Positions 37,720 through 49,206 of a stretch of DNA of 53,471 nt are shown here, piece by piece; the first letter of the stretch is position 1; each line of letters begins with the position of its first letter. The position numbers and the translations under genes were made by a program. Origin of the DNA: an uncultured Pseudoflavonifractor sp. (GTDB lineage Bacteria; Bacillota; Clostridia; Oscillospirales; Oscillospiraceae). The stretch spans positions 1 to 53,471 of the forward strand of contig CANPTT010000013.1 in assembly GCA_947577065.1 (NCBI GenBank), in the 5' to 3' direction. Under the pieces are notes generated by a model, which was not told the DNA's origin, searched no databases, and worked only from the letters and a program-made list of their open reading frames with translations.

Positions 37720-38370
37720 TTACCGGTCAAAGACAAAAGATTTTACCAGGGCCAACGGCTCCCGGAAAAACATCTGGATGGCCGAGGGGATGTGGCTCAC
37801 CGGAGCGGCCAGGGTGGAGATGGTGCAGGTCCCAGTCCAAGCCCGATCCCACAGCATCTGGATCCGGGCTAAATGGAACCCGCTGGATACCAACAGAAAT
37901 TCACTGCTAGTAAAGCCTCCCGCTCTCTCCTTAAGCTCCAAAGTGTAGTTCACATTCTGCCATGTGTTCCGGGACTGGTCCTCCAGAACAATAATCTCCC
38001 CCTCCACCCCGTGGGCGGTGAGGTAATCATACATACACTGGGCCTCAGACTGGTGTTCGTCGTCCCCCTTGCCCCCGGTGACCACGATCTCCATATCCGG
38101 GTGGTCTTTCAGATAGTCAAGAGCCGCGTCCAAACGGTCTTGAAGCAGGATGGACGGTCCCCAGGGCTCCACTTTACAACCAAAGATGACCATGATCTTT
38201 GGTTCTCCCACGATCTTATCCCGGCTGTGGAGACCAATATAGACCTCGAGCGCCGCAAAAAACAGTACCCCCAGGGCCAACAAAGCCAGTATCACCTTCC
38301 GCAGGGTGTGCCTGCCGCCCTTTTCCCCCCCATAGCCGCTGCGGCCGTCCCAGATGGGCTGATAACTCAT
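37720..38370 (-). CDS. YdcF/SanA-type (DUF218) membrane protein
   Basis: A 216-aa protein with one N-terminal membrane helix (about 24-46: KVILALLALGVLFFAAL) and an exported DUF218 domain. The domain starts IMVIFGCKVEPWGPS, with acidic DRLDAALDYL and VVTGGKGDDEHQSEAQCM, and LEDQSRNTWQNV is the family's E-x-x-S-x-x-T region. SanA/ElyC relatives act in wall-precursor or vancomycin barrier roles, so a cell-wall job is likely but unproved. Its start overlaps the ABC-F stop by 4 nt. Confidence 0.85.
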   Translation of the reverse strand: MSYQPIWDGRSGYGGEKGGRHTLRKVILALLALGVLFFAALEVYIGLHSRDKIVGEPKIMVIFGCKVEPWGPSILLQDRLDAALDYLKDHPDMEIVVTGGKGDDEHQSEAQCMYDYLTAHGVEGEIIVLEDQSRNTWQNVNYTLELKERAGGFTSSEFLLVSSGFHLARIQMLWDRAWTGTCTISTLAAPVSHIPSAIQMFFREPLALVKSFVFDR

Positions 38371-40268
38371 GGCTGTTTCATCTCCTCCAATTCGGCGGCC
38401 AGGGCCTCCCAGACGGTGTAGAGGTGGGCGATCTCCTCCTCCAGCTCCCGCTGCTCCTCATAGACCTTCTGCAGCTCCAGGTAGTTGTCCGAGACCTCCT
38501 CGGCCCGCTGGGTCAGCTCGTACTGCTTCTCCTCGGCCTTGGCCACCGCCCGCTCGGCGGCGGCCACCTGCTTCTCCAGCTCCTTGGTGCCCCCGGGACG
38601 TTTGGGCTTGTCCTTCTTGGGCTCCTCCTTCTCCGGGGGCGGGCTGTTTTTGGCGTAGACCTTCTGCCGCTCCTGATAGTCCAGAAACTCCTGATAGGTC
38701 CCCTTGAAGTCGGAGATATGTCTATCCTCCAGCATCCAGACCCTTTCCGCGAACTCGTTGATAAAGTAGCGGTCGTGGGAGACGAAAAGCAGGTTCCCCT
38801 CGTAGGCCCGCACCGCCTCCTCGATCCAGTCCCGGCTGTCCACGTCCAGGTGGTTGGTGGGCTCGTCCAGGATCAGAAGGTTGATCTTCTGGTGCATCAG
38901 CTCACAGAGCTTTAAGCGGCTCCTCTCCCCGCCGGACAGGTCAGAGACCTGCTTGAACACATCCTCCCCCCGGAAGTTGAAGGCGGCCAGGGTGTCCCGG
39001 GCCTCCTGGGGGGTGCAGTTCAGATCCCACAGAAGGGTGTCCACCAGGTTCCGCTCCGGGTGGTCGAAGGTCACCAGCTGGGGAAGATAGCCGATGCGGA
39101 CGGTGGGGCCGAAACGGAGTTTTCCCCCGGTGGGCTCCAGCTCCCCCAGCAGGATCTTGACGAAGGTGGATTTGCCTGTGCCGTTGTCCCCCAGGAGGGC
39201 GATGCGCTCCCCCCCGGCTACCTCCAGATCCACATTTTCAAAGAGGGTGCGGCCCTCAAAGCCCATGGTCAGCTCCTTCACCGTAAGGACCTCGTCCCCA
39301 CGGAACTCCTTCTCCCCAAAGCCCATGGTCATTTTCCGCTCCTTGGTGGGCCGGTCGGTGGTCTGGAGCCGCTCCATCCGCCGCTCCATATTGATGGCCC
39401 GCTTGTAGAGCTTGTCGTTGCCCATGAAGGCCCACAGGCGCATCTTATCGGCGGCCTCCTGGAGCTGCTCGATCTTGGCCTGCTCCTTCTCGTACTGCTT
39501 CAGCTTCTCCTGGAAGCGGCGCTCCTTCTCCTCCACGTAGAAGCTGTAGTTACCCGAGTAGAGCTCCGCCTTGCCGTCGTGGATCTCCACGCAGCGCTGG
39601 ACCACCTTGTCCAAAAACCAGCGGTCGTGGGAGATGGCCAGAACGGTGCCCTTGTAGCGGGACAGGTATTCCTCCAGCCACTGGGTGGCGTGGAGGTCCA
39701 GGTGGTTGGTGGGCTCGTCCAGGAGTAAAATTTCCGTCTCCCGGAGGATGAGCCGGGCCAGGTTCACCCGGGTCTTCTCCCCGCCGGAAAGTTCCGAAAA
39801 AAGCTGAGAGCGCATGGCGGGCGGGATGTCCAGGCCGTTGCAGACCTTGTTGAGGTTCATTTCCGTCTCGTAGCCCCCCTGCCGCTCGTAGAGGGCGGTG
39901 AGGGTGTCGTAGCGGGAGAGGGCGGACTTGTCCCCCTCCCCCATCTTTTCCGCCAACTGGGCCATCTCCCTCTCCATGTCCCGGAGGTGGTCAAAGGCGG
40001 TGTTCAGCACGTCCAGAACGGTGTACTCCGGGGGATAGACGGGGATCTGGGAGATCAGGCCCACCCCCTTGCCGGGGGCGGTGCGGGCCTCCCCCTCATC
40101 GGGCAGGAGTTCCCCGGTCAATATTTTGAACAGGGTGGTTTTTCCCGCGCCGTTTCGGCCCAAGAGCCCCACCCGCTCCCCCTGGTCCACCTGGAAGGAG
40201 AGGCCGTCCAGAATTTTTCTTCCAACCTCAAACTCGATGGACAGATCGGTGACTTGGATGTCAATCAT
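38367..40268 (-). CDS. ABC-F ATPase, YdiF/Uup-like translation factor
   Basis: A 633-aa soluble protein with two ABC domains and no membrane part. Walker A GRNGAGKTT is at about residue 37 and GDNGTGKST at about 360. ABC signatures LSGGEKTRV and LSGGERSRL and the P-site linker between them (about 240-320, GNDKLYKRAINMERRMERL) are all intact. A C-terminal coiled coil (about 555-633) marks YdiF/Uup-type housekeeping members rather than resistance types. ABC-F proteins enter the E-site and rescue stalled ribosomes. Overlaps the YdcF gene by ATGA; 48 nt after murF. Confidence 0.93.
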   Translation of the reverse strand: MIDIQVTDLSIEFEVGRKILDGLSFQVDQGERVGLLGRNGAGKTTLFKILTGELLPDEGEARTAPGKGVGLISQIPVYPPEYTVLDVLNTAFDHLRDMEREMAQLAEKMGEGDKSALSRYDTLTALYERQGGYETEMNLNKVCNGLDIPPAMRSQLFSELSGGEKTRVNLARLILRETEILLLDEPTNHLDLHATQWLEEYLSRYKGTVLAISHDRWFLDKVVQRCVEIHDGKAELYSGNYSFYVEEKERRFQEKLKQYEKEQAKIEQLQEAADKMRLWAFMGNDKLYKRAINMERRMERLQTTDRPTKERKMTMGFGEKEFRGDEVLTVKELTMGFEGRTLFENVDLEVAGGERIALLGDNGTGKSTFVKILLGELEPTGGKLRFGPTVRIGYLPQLVTFDHPERNLVDTLLWDLNCTPQEARDTLAAFNFRGEDVFKQVSDLSGGERSRLKLCELMHQKINLLILDEPTNHLDVDSRDWIEEAVRAYEGNLLFVSHDRYFINEFAERVWMLEDRHISDFKGTYQEFLDYQERQKVYAKNSPPPEKEEPKKDKPKRPGGTKELEKQVAAAERAVAKAEEKQYELTQRAEEVSDNYLELQKVYEEQRELEEEIAHLYTVWEALAAELEEMKQP

Positions 40269-46199: not shown

Positions 46200-47681
46200 T
46201 TACTCCAATGTTACCACCCTGGTGGCGATCTTCTCCCGGAAAGCGGCGTCGTGCTCCACGAAGATCATGGTAGGGGAAAACTGCCGGATCAGCGCTTCGA
46301 TCTGCATCCGGGAATAGACGTCGATAAAGTTCAGCGGCTCGTCCCAGACGTAGAGATGGGCCCTCTCGCACAGGCTTTTGGCGATGAGCACCTTCTTTTT
46401 CTGACCCCCGGAAAAATCCCTGACATCCTTCTCAAACTGCACCCGCTCGAGATCCATCTTCCGCAGGATGGTCTTGAAAAGGCTCTCGTCAATGTTCGAG
46501 CTTTGGGCCAACTCCGCCAAGGTCCCCTTCAGGTGGGAGGTGTCCTGGGACACATAGGAGATCACCAGCCCAGAGCCCACGCTGAGCGTTCCCCTGTGGT
46601 CGATGTCCCAACCCAGTAACAGTTTCAGAAGGCTGCTCTTGCCGCTGCCGTTGGCTCCGTCCAACGCCAAGCGCTCTCCCCGCCGGATGTCAAAGGACAG
46701 GGGGCCGCACACCGGTCTTCTGTCATAGAACACCTCCACCTTGTCAAAGGCGGCCAGCACCTCCGCGCGGTATTCCAAAGGGGCCAGCTTCAGTTCCTGG
46801 GCCGTCTCCCGGTTTTTCAGCAGCCCCTCTTTCTCCTCCAAGGCTTTCTCCTGCCTGGCCTCAATGGTCTTGGAGCGCTTCATCATCTTGGCAGACTTGT
46901 GTCCGATATATCCCTTGTCGGGCCGCAGGCCGGAATTCCGGGCGCCGTTCTTCGTGGCCTCCACCCGGTCTGACCAGGTCTTGGTCCGCCCGGCCGCCTG
47001 TCTCAGCCGCTTCACATCCCTCTGGAGGCGTTGGCTCTGGGTCTCCTCAAAGTCCTGCCGGCGCTGAAAGTTCTCCATCCAGGTGGAAAAATCGCCGCTC
47101 TGAACGGTGATATCCGCCCGGTTCAGGGAGAGGATGTGGTCTACACAGCCATCCAGAAACCGACGGTCGTGGGACACCAGGATAAACCCCCTCTTCCCCC
47201 GCAGGTACTCCGTCACCAGTTCCCGGCCCCGCAGGTCCAGGTGGTTGGTGGGCTCGTCAATAAGCAGAAAGCTCCCCTCCCGCAGGAAGAGGGCGGCCAG
47301 CAGGGCCCGGGTCTGCTCCCCGTTGGAGAGGGTAGAGTAGGGCCGGGCCAGGATCTTCTCCTCCAACTCCAGCCGGGCCAGCTCCCGCAGCAGCTCCCAC
47401 CCCTGGGCTTGGGGGCACACCTCCTCCAGTACCTCCCCTGCAGGCCGGGCTGGGTCGGGGACAGGACAGGGGAAATAGTCAAAGCTTACGGAGGACAGGA
47501 TCTTTCCACTATACTCATATCTCCCCATCAGAAGGTTCAAAAAGGTGGTCTTCCCCCTGCCGTTTCGGCCCACAAAGCCCAGCTTCCAGTCGGTGTCCAG
47601 CTGGAAGCTCACATTTTCAAATACATTGTCATAGCTGCCCGGATAGGCAAAAGTCAGGTTTTCTACTTTTATCATGGACAT
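46200..47681 (-). CDS. Lsa-type ABC-F ribosomal protection protein
   Basis: A 493-aa soluble tandem ABC protein. Walker A motifs GRNGRGKTT (about 39-47) and GANGSGKSS (about 340) and signatures LSNGEQTRA and FSGGQKKKV are present. Between them is the antibiotic-resistance-type linker (about 190-290: MKRSKTIEARQEKALEEKEG). The short length and opening (FAYPGSYDNVFENVSFQLDTDWKLGFVGRNG in pieces) match Lsa/CplR proteins, which displace lincosamides, streptogramin A and pleuromutilins from the ribosome. The first signature has N for G, as in related members. A 230-nt leader with promoter, small ORFs and a terminator precedes it. Confidence 0.88.
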   Translation of the reverse strand: MSMIKVENLTFAYPGSYDNVFENVSFQLDTDWKLGFVGRNGRGKTTFLNLLMGRYEYSGKILSSVSFDYFPCPVPDPARPAGEVLEEVCPQAQGWELLRELARLELEEKILARPYSTLSNGEQTRALLAALFLREGSFLLIDEPTNHLDLRGRELVTEYLRGKRGFILVSHDRRFLDGCVDHILSLNRADITVQSGDFSTWMENFQRRQDFEETQSQRLQRDVKRLRQAAGRTKTWSDRVEATKNGARNSGLRPDKGYIGHKSAKMMKRSKTIEARQEKALEEKEGLLKNRETAQELKLAPLEYRAEVLAAFDKVEVFYDRRPVCGPLSFDIRRGERLALDGANGSGKSSLLKLLLGWDIDHRGTLSVGSGLVISYVSQDTSHLKGTLAELAQSSNIDESLFKTILRKMDLERVQFEKDVRDFSGGQKKKVLIAKSLCERAHLYVWDEPLNFIDVYSRMQIEALIRQFSPTMIFVEHDAAFREKIATRVVTLE

Positions 47682-47836
47682 ACAGATCCCTCCTTGTCAA
47701 AAAACAAGCGCCCCGGAAAGAAACCCCTTCCGCGGCGCGCAACAGCATACAGCATCCCCCTGTACGGGATACCTCTATGATGAAAAGCAACAGGCGGCAG
47801 GTTTTCCTGTAAAGGGCGCAAAAATACTGTGGTCAT
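47672..47836 (-). CDS. Second leader ORF candidate, 54 aa
   Basis: An ATG frame starting MTTVFLRPLQENLPPVAFHH that runs through the attenuator and ends at TGA 47674-47672, overlapping the first codons of the Lsa-type gene. AAAGG lies 4 nt before its ATG. Ribosomes on it would break up the terminator hairpin. It may be a true leader peptide or a chance frame. Confidence 0.35.
   Translation of the reverse strand: MTTVFLRPLQENLPPVAFHHRGIPYRGMLYAVARRGRGFFPGRLFFDKEGSVCP
47698..47738 (-). terminator. Attenuator terminator just before the Lsa-type gene
   Basis: Reverse-strand stem GCGCC-x-CGGAA paired with TTCCG-x-GGCGC (one mismatch), then TTGTTTTTT, only ~17 nt before the start codon. A terminator between promoter and ribosome site is the mark of transcription attenuation. 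Confidence 0.85.
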
Positions 47837-47866
47837 CAGCCTTTTGTCTTCCCTTGTTTACAGGAC

Positions 47867-47878
47867 TTACTTGCGCAT
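47867..47878 (-). CDS. Three-codon leader ORF (Met-Arg-Lys-stop)
   Basis: ATG CGC AAG TAA, 31 nt after the promoter -10, with AAGGGG 7 nt before the ATG. Two nt after its stop begins TCCTGTAAA (47865-47857), which pairs perfectly with TTTACAGGA at 47813-47805. A ribosome stalled here by a drug would cover that arm. This is the usual logic of ABC-F and erm leaders. Confidence 0.5.
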   Translation of the reverse strand: MRK

Positions 47879-47908
47879 GCTCCCGCCCCTTCCATTTTTG
47901 TCGATTTT

Positions 47909-47937
47909 AGTGTATCATGGAAAAAGGAAAAAAGCAA
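47909..47937 (-). promoter_or_regulatory. Promoter of the Lsa-type gene and its leader
   Basis: Reverse-strand TTGCTT, 17 nt, TACACT, ~225 nt before the Lsa start. It overlaps the region upstream of the divergent methyltransferase gene. Confidence 0.75.
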
Positions 47938-47973
47938 GCTGGAAATTTTTTGGATCAGATTGGAGCGATTTCC

Positions 47974-49206
47974 ATGAAGCAGCAGCGTCCCTACCCCATT
48001 GTCACCATCACCAAGAAAAGCCAGCGTTCCATTGAGGCCGGACACCCCTGGGTCTATGCCGGGGAGGTGCTTTCCTGCCCGGAAACGGCGGAGAACGGCG
48101 CCATCGTAGACGTTTTGTCCGAGAAGGGGACTTGGCTGGGGGCGGGACTTCTGAGCCTTACTTCCCTTATCCGGGTACGACTACTGAGCCGGAACGCCAA
48201 CGACTGCTTTGACGAAGGCTTTTGGCTCCGGCGATTCCAATACGCCTGGGCCTATCGGAAGACGGTGTTGGAACCTCAGGACCTTGCCGCCTGCCGGGTG
48301 ATCTTTGGGGAATCGGACGGCCTGCCGGGGCTGACGGTGGACCGGTTCAACGACGTCCTGGTGACCCAGACCCTGTCCTACGGTATGGAGCAGCGGAAGG
48401 AACAGCTCCTCCCCCTGCTGGTCCGGGCCCTTCGGGAGGATGGGCAGGAGATCCGGGGCGTCTATGAGCGCAATGACGAGGCCCTGCGGGAGAAAGAGGG
48501 ACTGGCCCAAGGCAAGGGCTTCTTCCCCCTGCCCGGAGAGAGCGTCCCCGCCGGGACCGTCACCGAGATCACGGAAAACGGCGTTAAGTACACCGTGGAT
48601 TTTAAAAACGGCCAAAAGACCGGCTTCTTTCTGGATCAAAAGTACAACCGCCGGGCGGTGGGGCGGCTCTCGGCGGGCAAACGGGTGCTGGACTGCTTTA
48701 CCCATACCGGCTCCTTTGCCCTCAACGCCGCCCTGGGCGGAGCGGAGCATGTCACCGCCGTGGACGTGTCTCAGGCCGCCGTGGATATGGCCCGGCGGAA
48801 CGCCCTTCTGAATGGCCTGGAGGGCAGGATGGACTTCCTCTGTGCCGATGTGTTCGACCTGCTGCCTCAGCTTTTGGAGGAAAAGCGGCGGGGGTGGGAC
48901 TTTATCATTCTGGACCCTCCCGCCTTCACCAAATCCCGCCGCACGGCAGACCAGGCGGCCAAGGGCTACAAGGAGATCAACTACCGGGCCATGCGCCTGC
49001 TGCCCCGGGGCGGGTATCTGGCCACCTGCTCCTGCTCCCACTTTATGGAGGAACCCCGGTTTTTGGGCGTCATTGCCGCGGCAGCCCGGGACGCAGGGGT
49101 CCAACTCAAGCAGATCGAGGCCCGCCAGCAGGCCCCCGACCATCCCATCCTATGGGGCGTGCCGGAGACCAACTATTTGAAATTTTATCTCTTTCAGGTG
49201 GTGTAA
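47974..49206 (+). CDS. rlmI: RlmI-like 23S rRNA cytosine-C5 methyltransferase
   Basis: A 410-aa enzyme with an N-terminal PUA domain (about 6-75: HPWVYAGEVLSCPETAENG), an EEHEE-like middle, and a C-terminal Rossmann methyltransferase. Motif I is near residue 235 (VLDCFTHTGSFALNAALGG). Catalytic-region ILDPPAFTKS and the CSCSH stretch near the end complete it. RlmI methylates C1962 of 23S rRNA in E. coli; in Firmicutes the target may differ. ATG at 47974 is chosen, with TTGGAGCG before it; an upstream frame to 47917 overlaps the divergent Lsa promoter. Confidence 0.9.
   Translation: MKQQRPYPIVTITKKSQRSIEAGHPWVYAGEVLSCPETAENGAIVDVLSEKGTWLGAGLLSLTSLIRVRLLSRNANDCFDEGFWLRRFQYAWAYRKTVLEPQDLAACRVIFGESDGLPGLTVDRFNDVLVTQTLSYGMEQRKEQLLPLLVRALREDGQEIRGVYERNDEALREKEGLAQGKGFFPLPGESVPAGTVTEITENGVKYTVDFKNGQKTGFFLDQKYNRRAVGRLSAGKRVLDCFTHTGSFALNAALGGAEHVTAVDVSQAAVDMARRNALLNGLEGRMDFLCADVFDLLPQLLEEKRRGWDFIILDPPAFTKSRRTADQAAKGYKEINYRAMRLLPRGGYLATCSCSHFMEEPRFLGVIAAAARDAGVQLKQIEARQQAPDHPILWGVPETNYLKFYLFQVV

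What the first reader, a model, noticed from the sequence alone, without database searches (positions are those of the whole stretch)
47672..47937. Drug-responsive attenuator before an Lsa-type resistance gene, with a three-codon leader ORF
In 260 nt there is a promoter (TTGCTT-N17-TACACT), a Met-Arg-Lys-stop ORF, a 9-bp arm starting 2 nt after its stop (47857-47865) that pairs with 47805-47813, and a U-run terminator ~17 nt before the ABC-F start. A second 54-aa frame crosses the terminator and ends on the Lsa start. Stalling on so short a leader would be an unusually minimal sensor.
Basis: partly seen in the sequence, partly recalled or inferred. Interest (0 to 1): 0.72.

Follow-up and report, generated by a model that had tools for sequence, protein, structure and literature searches.

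The report
Three-codon leader switch before lsa gene
Upstream of a predicted antibiotic-resistance gene in a clostridial bacterium lies what looks like an RNA switch with a three-codon reading frame; it appears to be a cut-down version of a common six- or seven-codon switch, and similar cut-down versions, some of only two codons, seem to have arisen several times.

Summary
The anatomy is real: on the minus strand before an Lsa-like ABC-F gene lie a promoter shared with two close relatives, ATG-CGC-AAG-TAA, a 9-nt arm with an exact complement, and a U-run terminator. The 54-aa frame exists but is not conserved. Relatives usually encode M-x-x-F-S-C-(K/R) at this start codon; the window's arm TCCTGTAAA is the former Ser-Cys-Lys codons, now outside the ORF yet still paired. 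The downstream arm also complements the terminator's loop and 3' strand; in stepwise folding it captures that strand only if the leader arm is blocked, though in the window the completed terminator still wins at equilibrium. Among 102 distinct model-detected leaders, ORFs have 7 (62), 6 (31), 3 (5) or 2 (4) codons; a quick tree needs seven changes, at least five forced by supported branches. Plasmid lsa(E) has the same element. Best reading: a transcription attenuator sensing a ribosome stalled at the leader start, as in vmlR and cplR. Three-codon leaders are already known, so 'unusually minimal' is not supported; the recurrent trimming is the new part. Drug response was not testable.

The parts
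47909..47937 (-). promoter: TTGCTT, 17 nt, TACACT (extended -10 TGATACACT)
   Evidence: read; L009 has TTGATT, L090 TTGCTT, both 17 nt before TACACT; not found by the consensus scan
47773..47892 (-). stem-loop SL1 (proposed anti-antiterminator) holding the leader SD, leader ORF and both arms
   Evidence: covariance model R1 match, 57.9 bits, E 2.7e-9; the window copy is one of the 41 rows of the model, so the match is partly by construction
47867..47878 (-). leader ORF ATG CGC AAG TAA (Met-Arg-Lys-stop)
   Evidence: start column shared with M-x-x-F-S-C-(K/R) leaders of relatives
47857..47865 (-). arm 1, TCCTGTAAA; corresponds to the Ser-Cys-Lys codons of relatives' leader ORFs, here outside the ORF
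47800..47813 (-). arm 2, TTTACAGGA (47813-47805) plus AAACC; pairs with arm 1 or with the terminator loop and 3' strand
47708..47738 (-). intrinsic terminator hairpin (-22.2 kcal/mol); loop and 3' strand 47725-47708 complement arm 2 and the GCGCCC before it
47698..47707 (-). U-run of the terminator, TTGTTTTTTG
46200..47681 (-). Lsa-like ABC-F ribosomal protection gene, 493 aa; SD AAGGAGGG at 47695-47688
   Evidence: NF000355 462.6 bits (cut-off 380), NF000167 Lsa 717.5 bits (cut-off 750); Lsa(A) chain 7nhk E 1.8e-123
47672..47836 (-).
   Evidence: exists; frames at this place differ in L009 and L090

Best explanation
A ribosome-mediated transcription attenuator. Without drug, a ribosome translates Met-Arg-Lys and leaves; arm 1 pairs with arm 2 (SL1), so arm 2 cannot interfere, the terminator hairpin forms and transcription stops about 17 nt before lsa. 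A drug that traps the ribosome at the leader start codon (lincosamide, pleuromutilin or streptogramin A, by analogy) leaves its leading edge at about +16, which covers the first bases of arm 1 (+14 to +22) and weakens SL1. Free arm 2 then captures the terminator's loop and 3' strand as they emerge, and polymerase reads on into lsa. The three-codon ORF is a shortened M-R-x-F-S-C-K leader: a stop codon now precedes the Ser-Cys-Lys codons, which survive only as pairing arm 1. Seen in sequence or computation here: ORF, arms, covariation, terminator, complementarity, differing leader lengths on the tree. Inferred: translation, stalling site, antitermination, drug response, and that the short form is the derived one.
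For: Leader ORFs M-x-x-x-S-C, with or without a final K/R, occur in 58 of 94 distinct leaders against a mean of 0.05 in 20 shuffled sets. Arm pairing on 41 leaders: 97.9% of cells paired (94.8% shuffled, 0 of 500 as high), 14 two-sided cells against 4.9 (0 of 500), 36.6-51.7% paired when slid. Swap test: window-clade arm 2 binds window-clade terminators at -16.8 (self pairs included) but other leaders' at -8.9 kcal/mol; other leaders' arm 2 binds the clade's terminators at -8.7 and each other's at -15.3. Stepwise folding: the free leader gives the terminator; with arm 1 blocked, arm 2 pairs with the terminator strand before the terminator does in the 9 leaders run. Blocking to +12 leaves about 8 arm pairs in the window leader; blocking to +16 leaves 4.8 falling to 0.3 as the transcript grows. 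Model hits lie before lsa in 33 of 34 sense places of the family search and 20 of 21 others of the class search.
Against: At full length the terminator is the more stable state in the window leader even with arm 1 blocked, so antitermination would have to be kinetic. For L090, same clade, the arm 2-terminator energy is reached by 298 of 1000 shuffles; with a slightly shifted arm 2 window it is -20.7 instead of -11.9 kcal/mol, so that test depends on the window chosen. Only 3 of 8 arm pairs have two-sided changes, which 69 of 500 shuffles reach. In the whole set about 29% of other leaders' terminators bind a given arm 2 better than its own. The MRK variant in B. subtilis vmlR induced less well than MIN. 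No expression data exist here.
Confidence: 0.77

Rival explanations
1. Translation attenuation dominates: the stalled leader ribosome mainly frees the lsa Shine-Dalgarno site, and the terminator matters little.
For: cplR of C. difficile keeps drug control when its U-run is mutated (PMC10201436 passages). A small hairpin (CTTGT-ACAAG) touches the window lsa SD in the predicted fold.
Against: The window terminator ends before the SD AAGGAGGG and does not bury it; arm 2 complements the terminator.
Confidence: 0.1
2. A decaying leader: the MRK clade lost a working longer leader and the gene is now simply off or constitutive.
For: The ORF is three codons in three species while the sister group on the tree has MRKFSCK, MRQFSCK and MRMISC.
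Against: Leader SD, start codon, stop at codon 4, arms and terminator are kept in the three species although the sequences diverged (TAA or TGA stop; arm TGT with partner ACA in two of three, a mismatch in L009). Short forms recur elsewhere with arms kept.
Confidence: 0.08
3. A peptide-specific sensor: Met-Arg-Lys itself is the arrest motif, in the way ketolides favour Arg/Lys-X-Arg/Lys.
For: R or K stands at positions 2-3 in this clade; the ketolide motif is from the abstract start of PMC8298421 in the listing, and MRK is not an exact fit to it.
Against: Positions 2-3 vary widely among leaders (MIN, MRN, MYN, MRK, MKL, MSG; names), and two-codon leaders MI and MK exist; PLSA drugs, against which ARE3 LsaA protects, act after initiation with little context (PMC10201436 passages).
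Confidence: 0.05

Closest known systems
vmlR leader of Bacillus subtilis (PMC9226507; sections 18 and 23 read, plus passages)
   Same: three-codon uORF inside an anti-antiterminator stem-loop, intrinsic terminator, proposed antiterminator, ABC-F gene against lincosamides and pleuromutilins; needs uORF initiation; an MRK variant works, less well
   Different: no report there, in what I read, that an arm is a former stretch of codons; the sequences could not be compared here (a pattern search in 397 genomes found none); a pause hairpin and an SD hairpin are described there
cplR leader of Clostridioides difficile (PMC10201436; passages read)
   Same: uORF MRI, terminator before an ABC-F gene, uORF start codon needed for induction by lincomycin and retapamulin
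   Different: the terminator stem also hides the cplR SD, so translation attenuation is strong; CplR is ARE1, Lsa is ARE3
E. faecalis lsaA uORF MAGN (PMC10201436; passages read, a prediction)
   Same: short uORF before an Lsa gene
   Different: four codons, sequence unlike F-S-C-K
are5sc and tiaA leaders of Streptomyces (PMC12421871; passages read)
   Same: three-codon MLV leader, toeprinted at its start codon with lincosamides, tiamulin and pristinamycin IIA
   Different: ARE5 genes; no shared sequence looked for

Membership tests
uORF-dependent ARE ABC-F attenuators (vmlR/cplR kind) | short uORF with its own SD between promoter and ABC-F gene | tested here: met
   (by sequence; translation not shown)
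uORF-dependent ARE ABC-F attenuators (vmlR/cplR kind) | stem-loop that overlaps the uORF (anti-antiterminator), conserved with covariation | tested here: met
uORF-dependent ARE ABC-F attenuators (vmlR/cplR kind) | intrinsic terminator upstream of the gene | tested here: met
   (hairpin plus T-run in the window and in 62 of 67 distinct leaders examined); the consensus scan missed the window's
uORF-dependent ARE ABC-F attenuators (vmlR/cplR kind) | alternative antiterminator that wins when the uORF is occupied | tested here: inconclusive
   wins part-way through transcription in stepwise folding, loses at full length in the window leader
uORF-dependent ARE ABC-F attenuators (vmlR/cplR kind) | drug-dependent readthrough; ribosome stall on the uORF | not testable with these tools
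   needs transcripts and toeprints
Lsa family ABC-F proteins (NF000167) | score at or above the curated cut-off of 750 bits | tested here: not met
   717.5 bits over the full profile; hence called Lsa-like; 63.1% identical to Lsa(B) over 98%
ribosomal protection-like ABC-F (NF000355) | score at or above 380 bits | tested here: met
   462.6 bits
any Rfam 15 family | match at gathering score | tested here: not met
   5 matches in the window, all tRNA; 3 weak matches in 47600-47990, all snoRNA models below gathering score

The most novel reading that the evidence does not exclude
The lsa leaders form an undescribed RNA attenuator family whose coding part is dispensable beyond the first codons: selection keeps the old Phe-Ser-Cys-Lys codons as a pairing arm and repeatedly places a stop in front of them, leaving leaders of three and even two codons (Met-Ile-stop, Met-Lys-stop). 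These would be smaller than any antibiotic-sensing ORF in the papers I saw, and natural proof that only a start-codon-trapped ribosome is read out.
Probability: 0.5. Interest if true: 0.66.

Novelty: new variant of a known kind. Interest (0 to 1): 0.5.

Why it matters
Whether short drug-sensing leaders read the nascent peptide or merely a ribosome trapped at initiation is usually asked by mutation. Here natural variation appears to have done the experiment: the same RNA arms are kept while the peptide is cut to three or two codons, apparently several times. The element also sits before the plasmid-borne gene lsa(E), so what holds for these leaders bears on how that gene is switched on.

Tried and rejected
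Single-sequence tests: arm pairing (26 of 300 shuffles as good), whole-leader z-score and constrained MFE with a ribosome footprint (terminator unchanged) do not by themselves prove a switch. The consensus scan found no terminator here.

The 54-aa frame and a 19-aa frame, 47895-47836, that overlaps MRK were dropped; the second by eye only, because L009 lacks its ATG and L090 shifts its frame.

That the element is in Rfam was tested and dropped. That it serves many genes was tested: of 34 sense places in 300 family genomes, 33 precede lsa and one lies at a contig end; of 21 further places in 391 class genomes, 20 precede lsa and one (L196) another ABC-F gene. In 387 genomes of the order of G348 (the genome of L081), 27 places came up at E up to 0.05; of the 20 read, one (L212) precedes lsa and 19 do not, so weak model scores there are noise, mostly an SD and ATG.

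A link to the vmlR MIN leader (same first three codons as MINFSCK) was sought; the DNA pattern was not found in 397 genomes, so it stays a lead.

Rows dropped: of 111 and 56 model matches I kept 74 and 49 sense rows of 30 bits or more. The rest were antisense echoes of the near-palindromic stem, two off-site rows (L025, L109) and four sense rows under 30 bits (L110, L061, L111, L102). Of the loci then held, 157 were given to these two calls; left out were L035 and L068 (little upstream DNA), near-copies or repeats of genomes already in (L089, L091, L092, L120, L125, L127-L129, L133, L139, L140), L150 (cut off), and the loci of other proteins. Leaders with other short ORFs that the model did not catch (for example L104 MKNR, L114 MHISA, L116 MRILIA) are outside the length count, so 'no other length' holds only inside the model's set.

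Full report
What is there. The gene is on the minus strand, 46200-47681, 493 aa. It scores 462.6 bits with NF000355 (cut-off 380) and 717.5 with the Lsa model NF000167 (cut-off 750), so I call it Lsa-like. The only solved chain at E up to 1e-60 is Lsa(A), 7nhk; plasmid Lsa(B) is 63.1% identical over 98%. Two same-genus loci (L091, L092) have the same leaders as contigs named uncultured Pseudoflavonifractor (L078, L030). The promoter recurs in L009 and L090 with the same -10 region and spacing. The 54-aa frame exists, but the frames at this place differ in L009 and L090.

What relatives show. I took leaders from 80 named loci, 29 loci of relatives (36 of 99 genomes, the window's own included, had a match at the threshold used) and the window: 110 in all, 105 of at least 250 nt, 94 distinct in their last 250 nt. 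A leader ORF M-x-x-x-S-C, with or without K/R, more than 160 nt upstream is present in 58 of 94, against a mean of 0.05 (largest 1) in 20 shuffled sets. Typical is MINFSCK with a GAGGTGA SD. The codons for F-S-C-K pair with TTGCAAGAAAG about 40-80 nt on, and the terminator, typically GAGCTGCAAGAATTGACTTTCTTGCAGCTC, carries a further copy of the same arms. The window's 9-nt arm corresponds to the S-C-K codons: L093 of the same genus reads ATGCGCAAG TTT TCC TGC AAG TAA (MRKFSCK), the window ATGCGCAAG TAAG TCCTGTAAA, L009 ATGCGCAAG TGA TCCTGTAAA and L090 ATGCGCAAG TAA GCCTGTAAA. In the genus, 10 of 16 held genomes have the gene at E up to 1e-100: three with MRK, one each with MRQFSCK, MRMISC and MRKFSCK, and four more distant ones (52-56% identity), of which L118 and L119 read MRNISR and MRHISR, L113 the same kind from TTG, and L117 is unclear.

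Is the pairing real? On 41 aligned leaders the eight arm pairs form in 97.9% of cells (94.8% shuffled, 0 of 500 as high), with 14 cells changed on both sides against 4.9 (0 of 500); sliding the partner gives 36.6-51.7% paired. Three of eight pairs have two-sided changes, against 1.8 in shuffles (69 of 500), so that measure alone is weak; the rows are related and were aligned by sequence. In the window clade a C-G pair became U-A in two of three rows; the third, L009, has a mismatch there. Terminators fit their own clade: window-clade arm 2 binds window-clade terminators at -16.8 kcal/mol (self pairs included) but others at -8.9; other arm 2 sequences bind the window clade's terminators at -8.7 and each other's at -15.3 (54 leaders used of 60 with clean data, of 67 with an ORF). 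Over the set, own arm 2-terminator energy is -17.5 against -14.6 for foreign ones, and about 29% of foreign ones are better than the own; for arm 1-arm 2 the figures are -13.9, -11.9 and 23%. In the clade the pairing has two blocks, GCGCCC with GGGGCGC and GGAAA with TTTCC. Against: for L090 the energy is reached by 298 of 1000 shuffles (window 4, L009 13), though a shifted arm 2 window gives -20.7 instead of -11.9.

How it may switch. Folding the transcript at increasing length, the free leader forms the terminator in the nine leaders run. With arm 1 blocked, arm 2 pairs with the terminator's loop and 3' strand before the terminator does in all nine; in L027 and L059 it still holds at the end, in six (window included) the terminator is favoured once complete, and L090 is mixed. 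So in the window antitermination would rest on kinetic capture. Blocking -15 to +12 leaves about 8 arm pairs in the window leader; blocking to +16, the edge of a ribosome with ATG in its P site (toeprint distance from PMC9226507), leaves 4.8 early and 1.1 or less once the terminator is out. That fits a ribosome trapped at the start codon. This is computation, not proof.

Recurrent shortening. A covariance model (R1) was run over 157 loci. Of its matches I used 123 sense rows of at least 30 bits, 102 of them distinct at the 5' end (first 45-50 nt). ORF length from the shared start column: seven codons 62, six 31, three 5, two 4. The three-codon ones are MRK (window, L009, L090), MRN (L192) and MKL (L204); the two-codon ones MI (L203, L151) and MK (L207, L211). 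L151 has a poor SD. All nine keep an arm 2 and a hairpin before lsa; the T-run is weak in L192, L207 and L211, and the arm pairing alone beats shuffles clearly in only some (0 to 54 of 300 as good). On a quick Lsa tree of 100 rows (L196 and the short L130 left out; LG+G4, SH-aLRT only) the short label needs 7 changes, at least 5 forced by starred branches; the window clade is a supported trio (99) beside the genus's F-S-C and I-S-C leaders, and L203 (MI) is sister to L200 (MINFSC, 100). Stars of a quick tree deserve less trust, and parsimony cannot tell gain from loss; the far greater number of long leaders makes shortening the simpler reading. Sequencing error in MAGs could explain single cases but hardly different stops at one place in several lineages.

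Spread. The model hit 33 of 300 family genomes; of 34 sense places 33 precede lsa and one is at a contig end. In 391 class genomes, 22 had a match; apart from the window, 20 of 21 precede lsa and L196 precedes another ABC-F protein. In 387 genomes of the order of G348 (Sutcliffiella horikoshii, L081) one real case was seen among the 20 of 27 places read. The plasmid lsa(E) record NZ_KR936172 has MYNFSC with the same arms and terminator. lsa(B) (L184) has another leader type, read by eye.

Compared with what is known. Three-codon leaders are established: vmlR MIN, needed for lincomycin induction, with the Bacilli variants MDN, MDK and MRK tested, MRK being weaker (PMC9226507 sections 18 and 23); cplR MRI (PMC10201436 passages); are5sc MLV, stalled at its start codon by lincosamides and tiamulin (PMC12421871 passages). 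LsaA was assigned MAGN by prediction. So the mechanism class is known and the window is a new member. The F-S-C-K leader family, its presence before lsa(E), and its cutting to two or three codons did not show in my paper searches or in the passages I read; these cover open papers only, I saw listings for most, and the seven papers holding the peptide strings have unrelated titles and were not opened. Rfam has no such family at gathering score in the window.

Verdict.

Noticed in passing
L012, L084, L014, L016, L056, L081, L184 (plasmid lsa(B)), L185: A second leader type with a VTH-like stretch (for example MSTDTVVTHDLLRISR in L056) lies before other Lsa genes; L012 and L084 carry the F-S-C-K attenuator and then a frame of this second type.
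   Followed up: partly
L196 (reverse strand), leader at 1501-1621, gene 1-1437: The MIIFSCK leader stands before a non-Lsa ABC-F protein (NF000355 421 bits, next best Msr and CplR models), so the element may have moved between ABC-F genes.
   Followed up: partly
window 47917-49206 (+): Divergent gene like 23S rRNA C5-methyltransferases (RlmI models, below cut-off); its longest ORF start overlaps the lsa promoter, so the true start may be 47974.
   Followed up: no
window 38367-40268 (-): Second ABC-F gene in the window (633 aa ORF; NF000355 438 bits).
   Followed up: no
e.g. L038 1741-1858 (-), L049 1206-1330 (-): SL1 is near-palindromic: the model also scores its antisense strand in many loci.
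   Followed up: partly
L086 (Scardovia wiggsiae): An actinobacterial Lsa gene with a GTG-start MYSFSCR frame and matching arms by eye, though the model gave no hit there; possible transfer of gene and leader together.
   Followed up: no
L187 (Paenibacillus urinalis plasmid): Arms and a terminator of this type are present by eye but the leader start is unclear; an ATG is directly followed by TGA near the expected place; no model hit.
   Followed up: no
L070, leader at 590-713, lsa at 2001: The leader lies about 1.3 kb from lsa, with other sequence in between.
   Followed up: no
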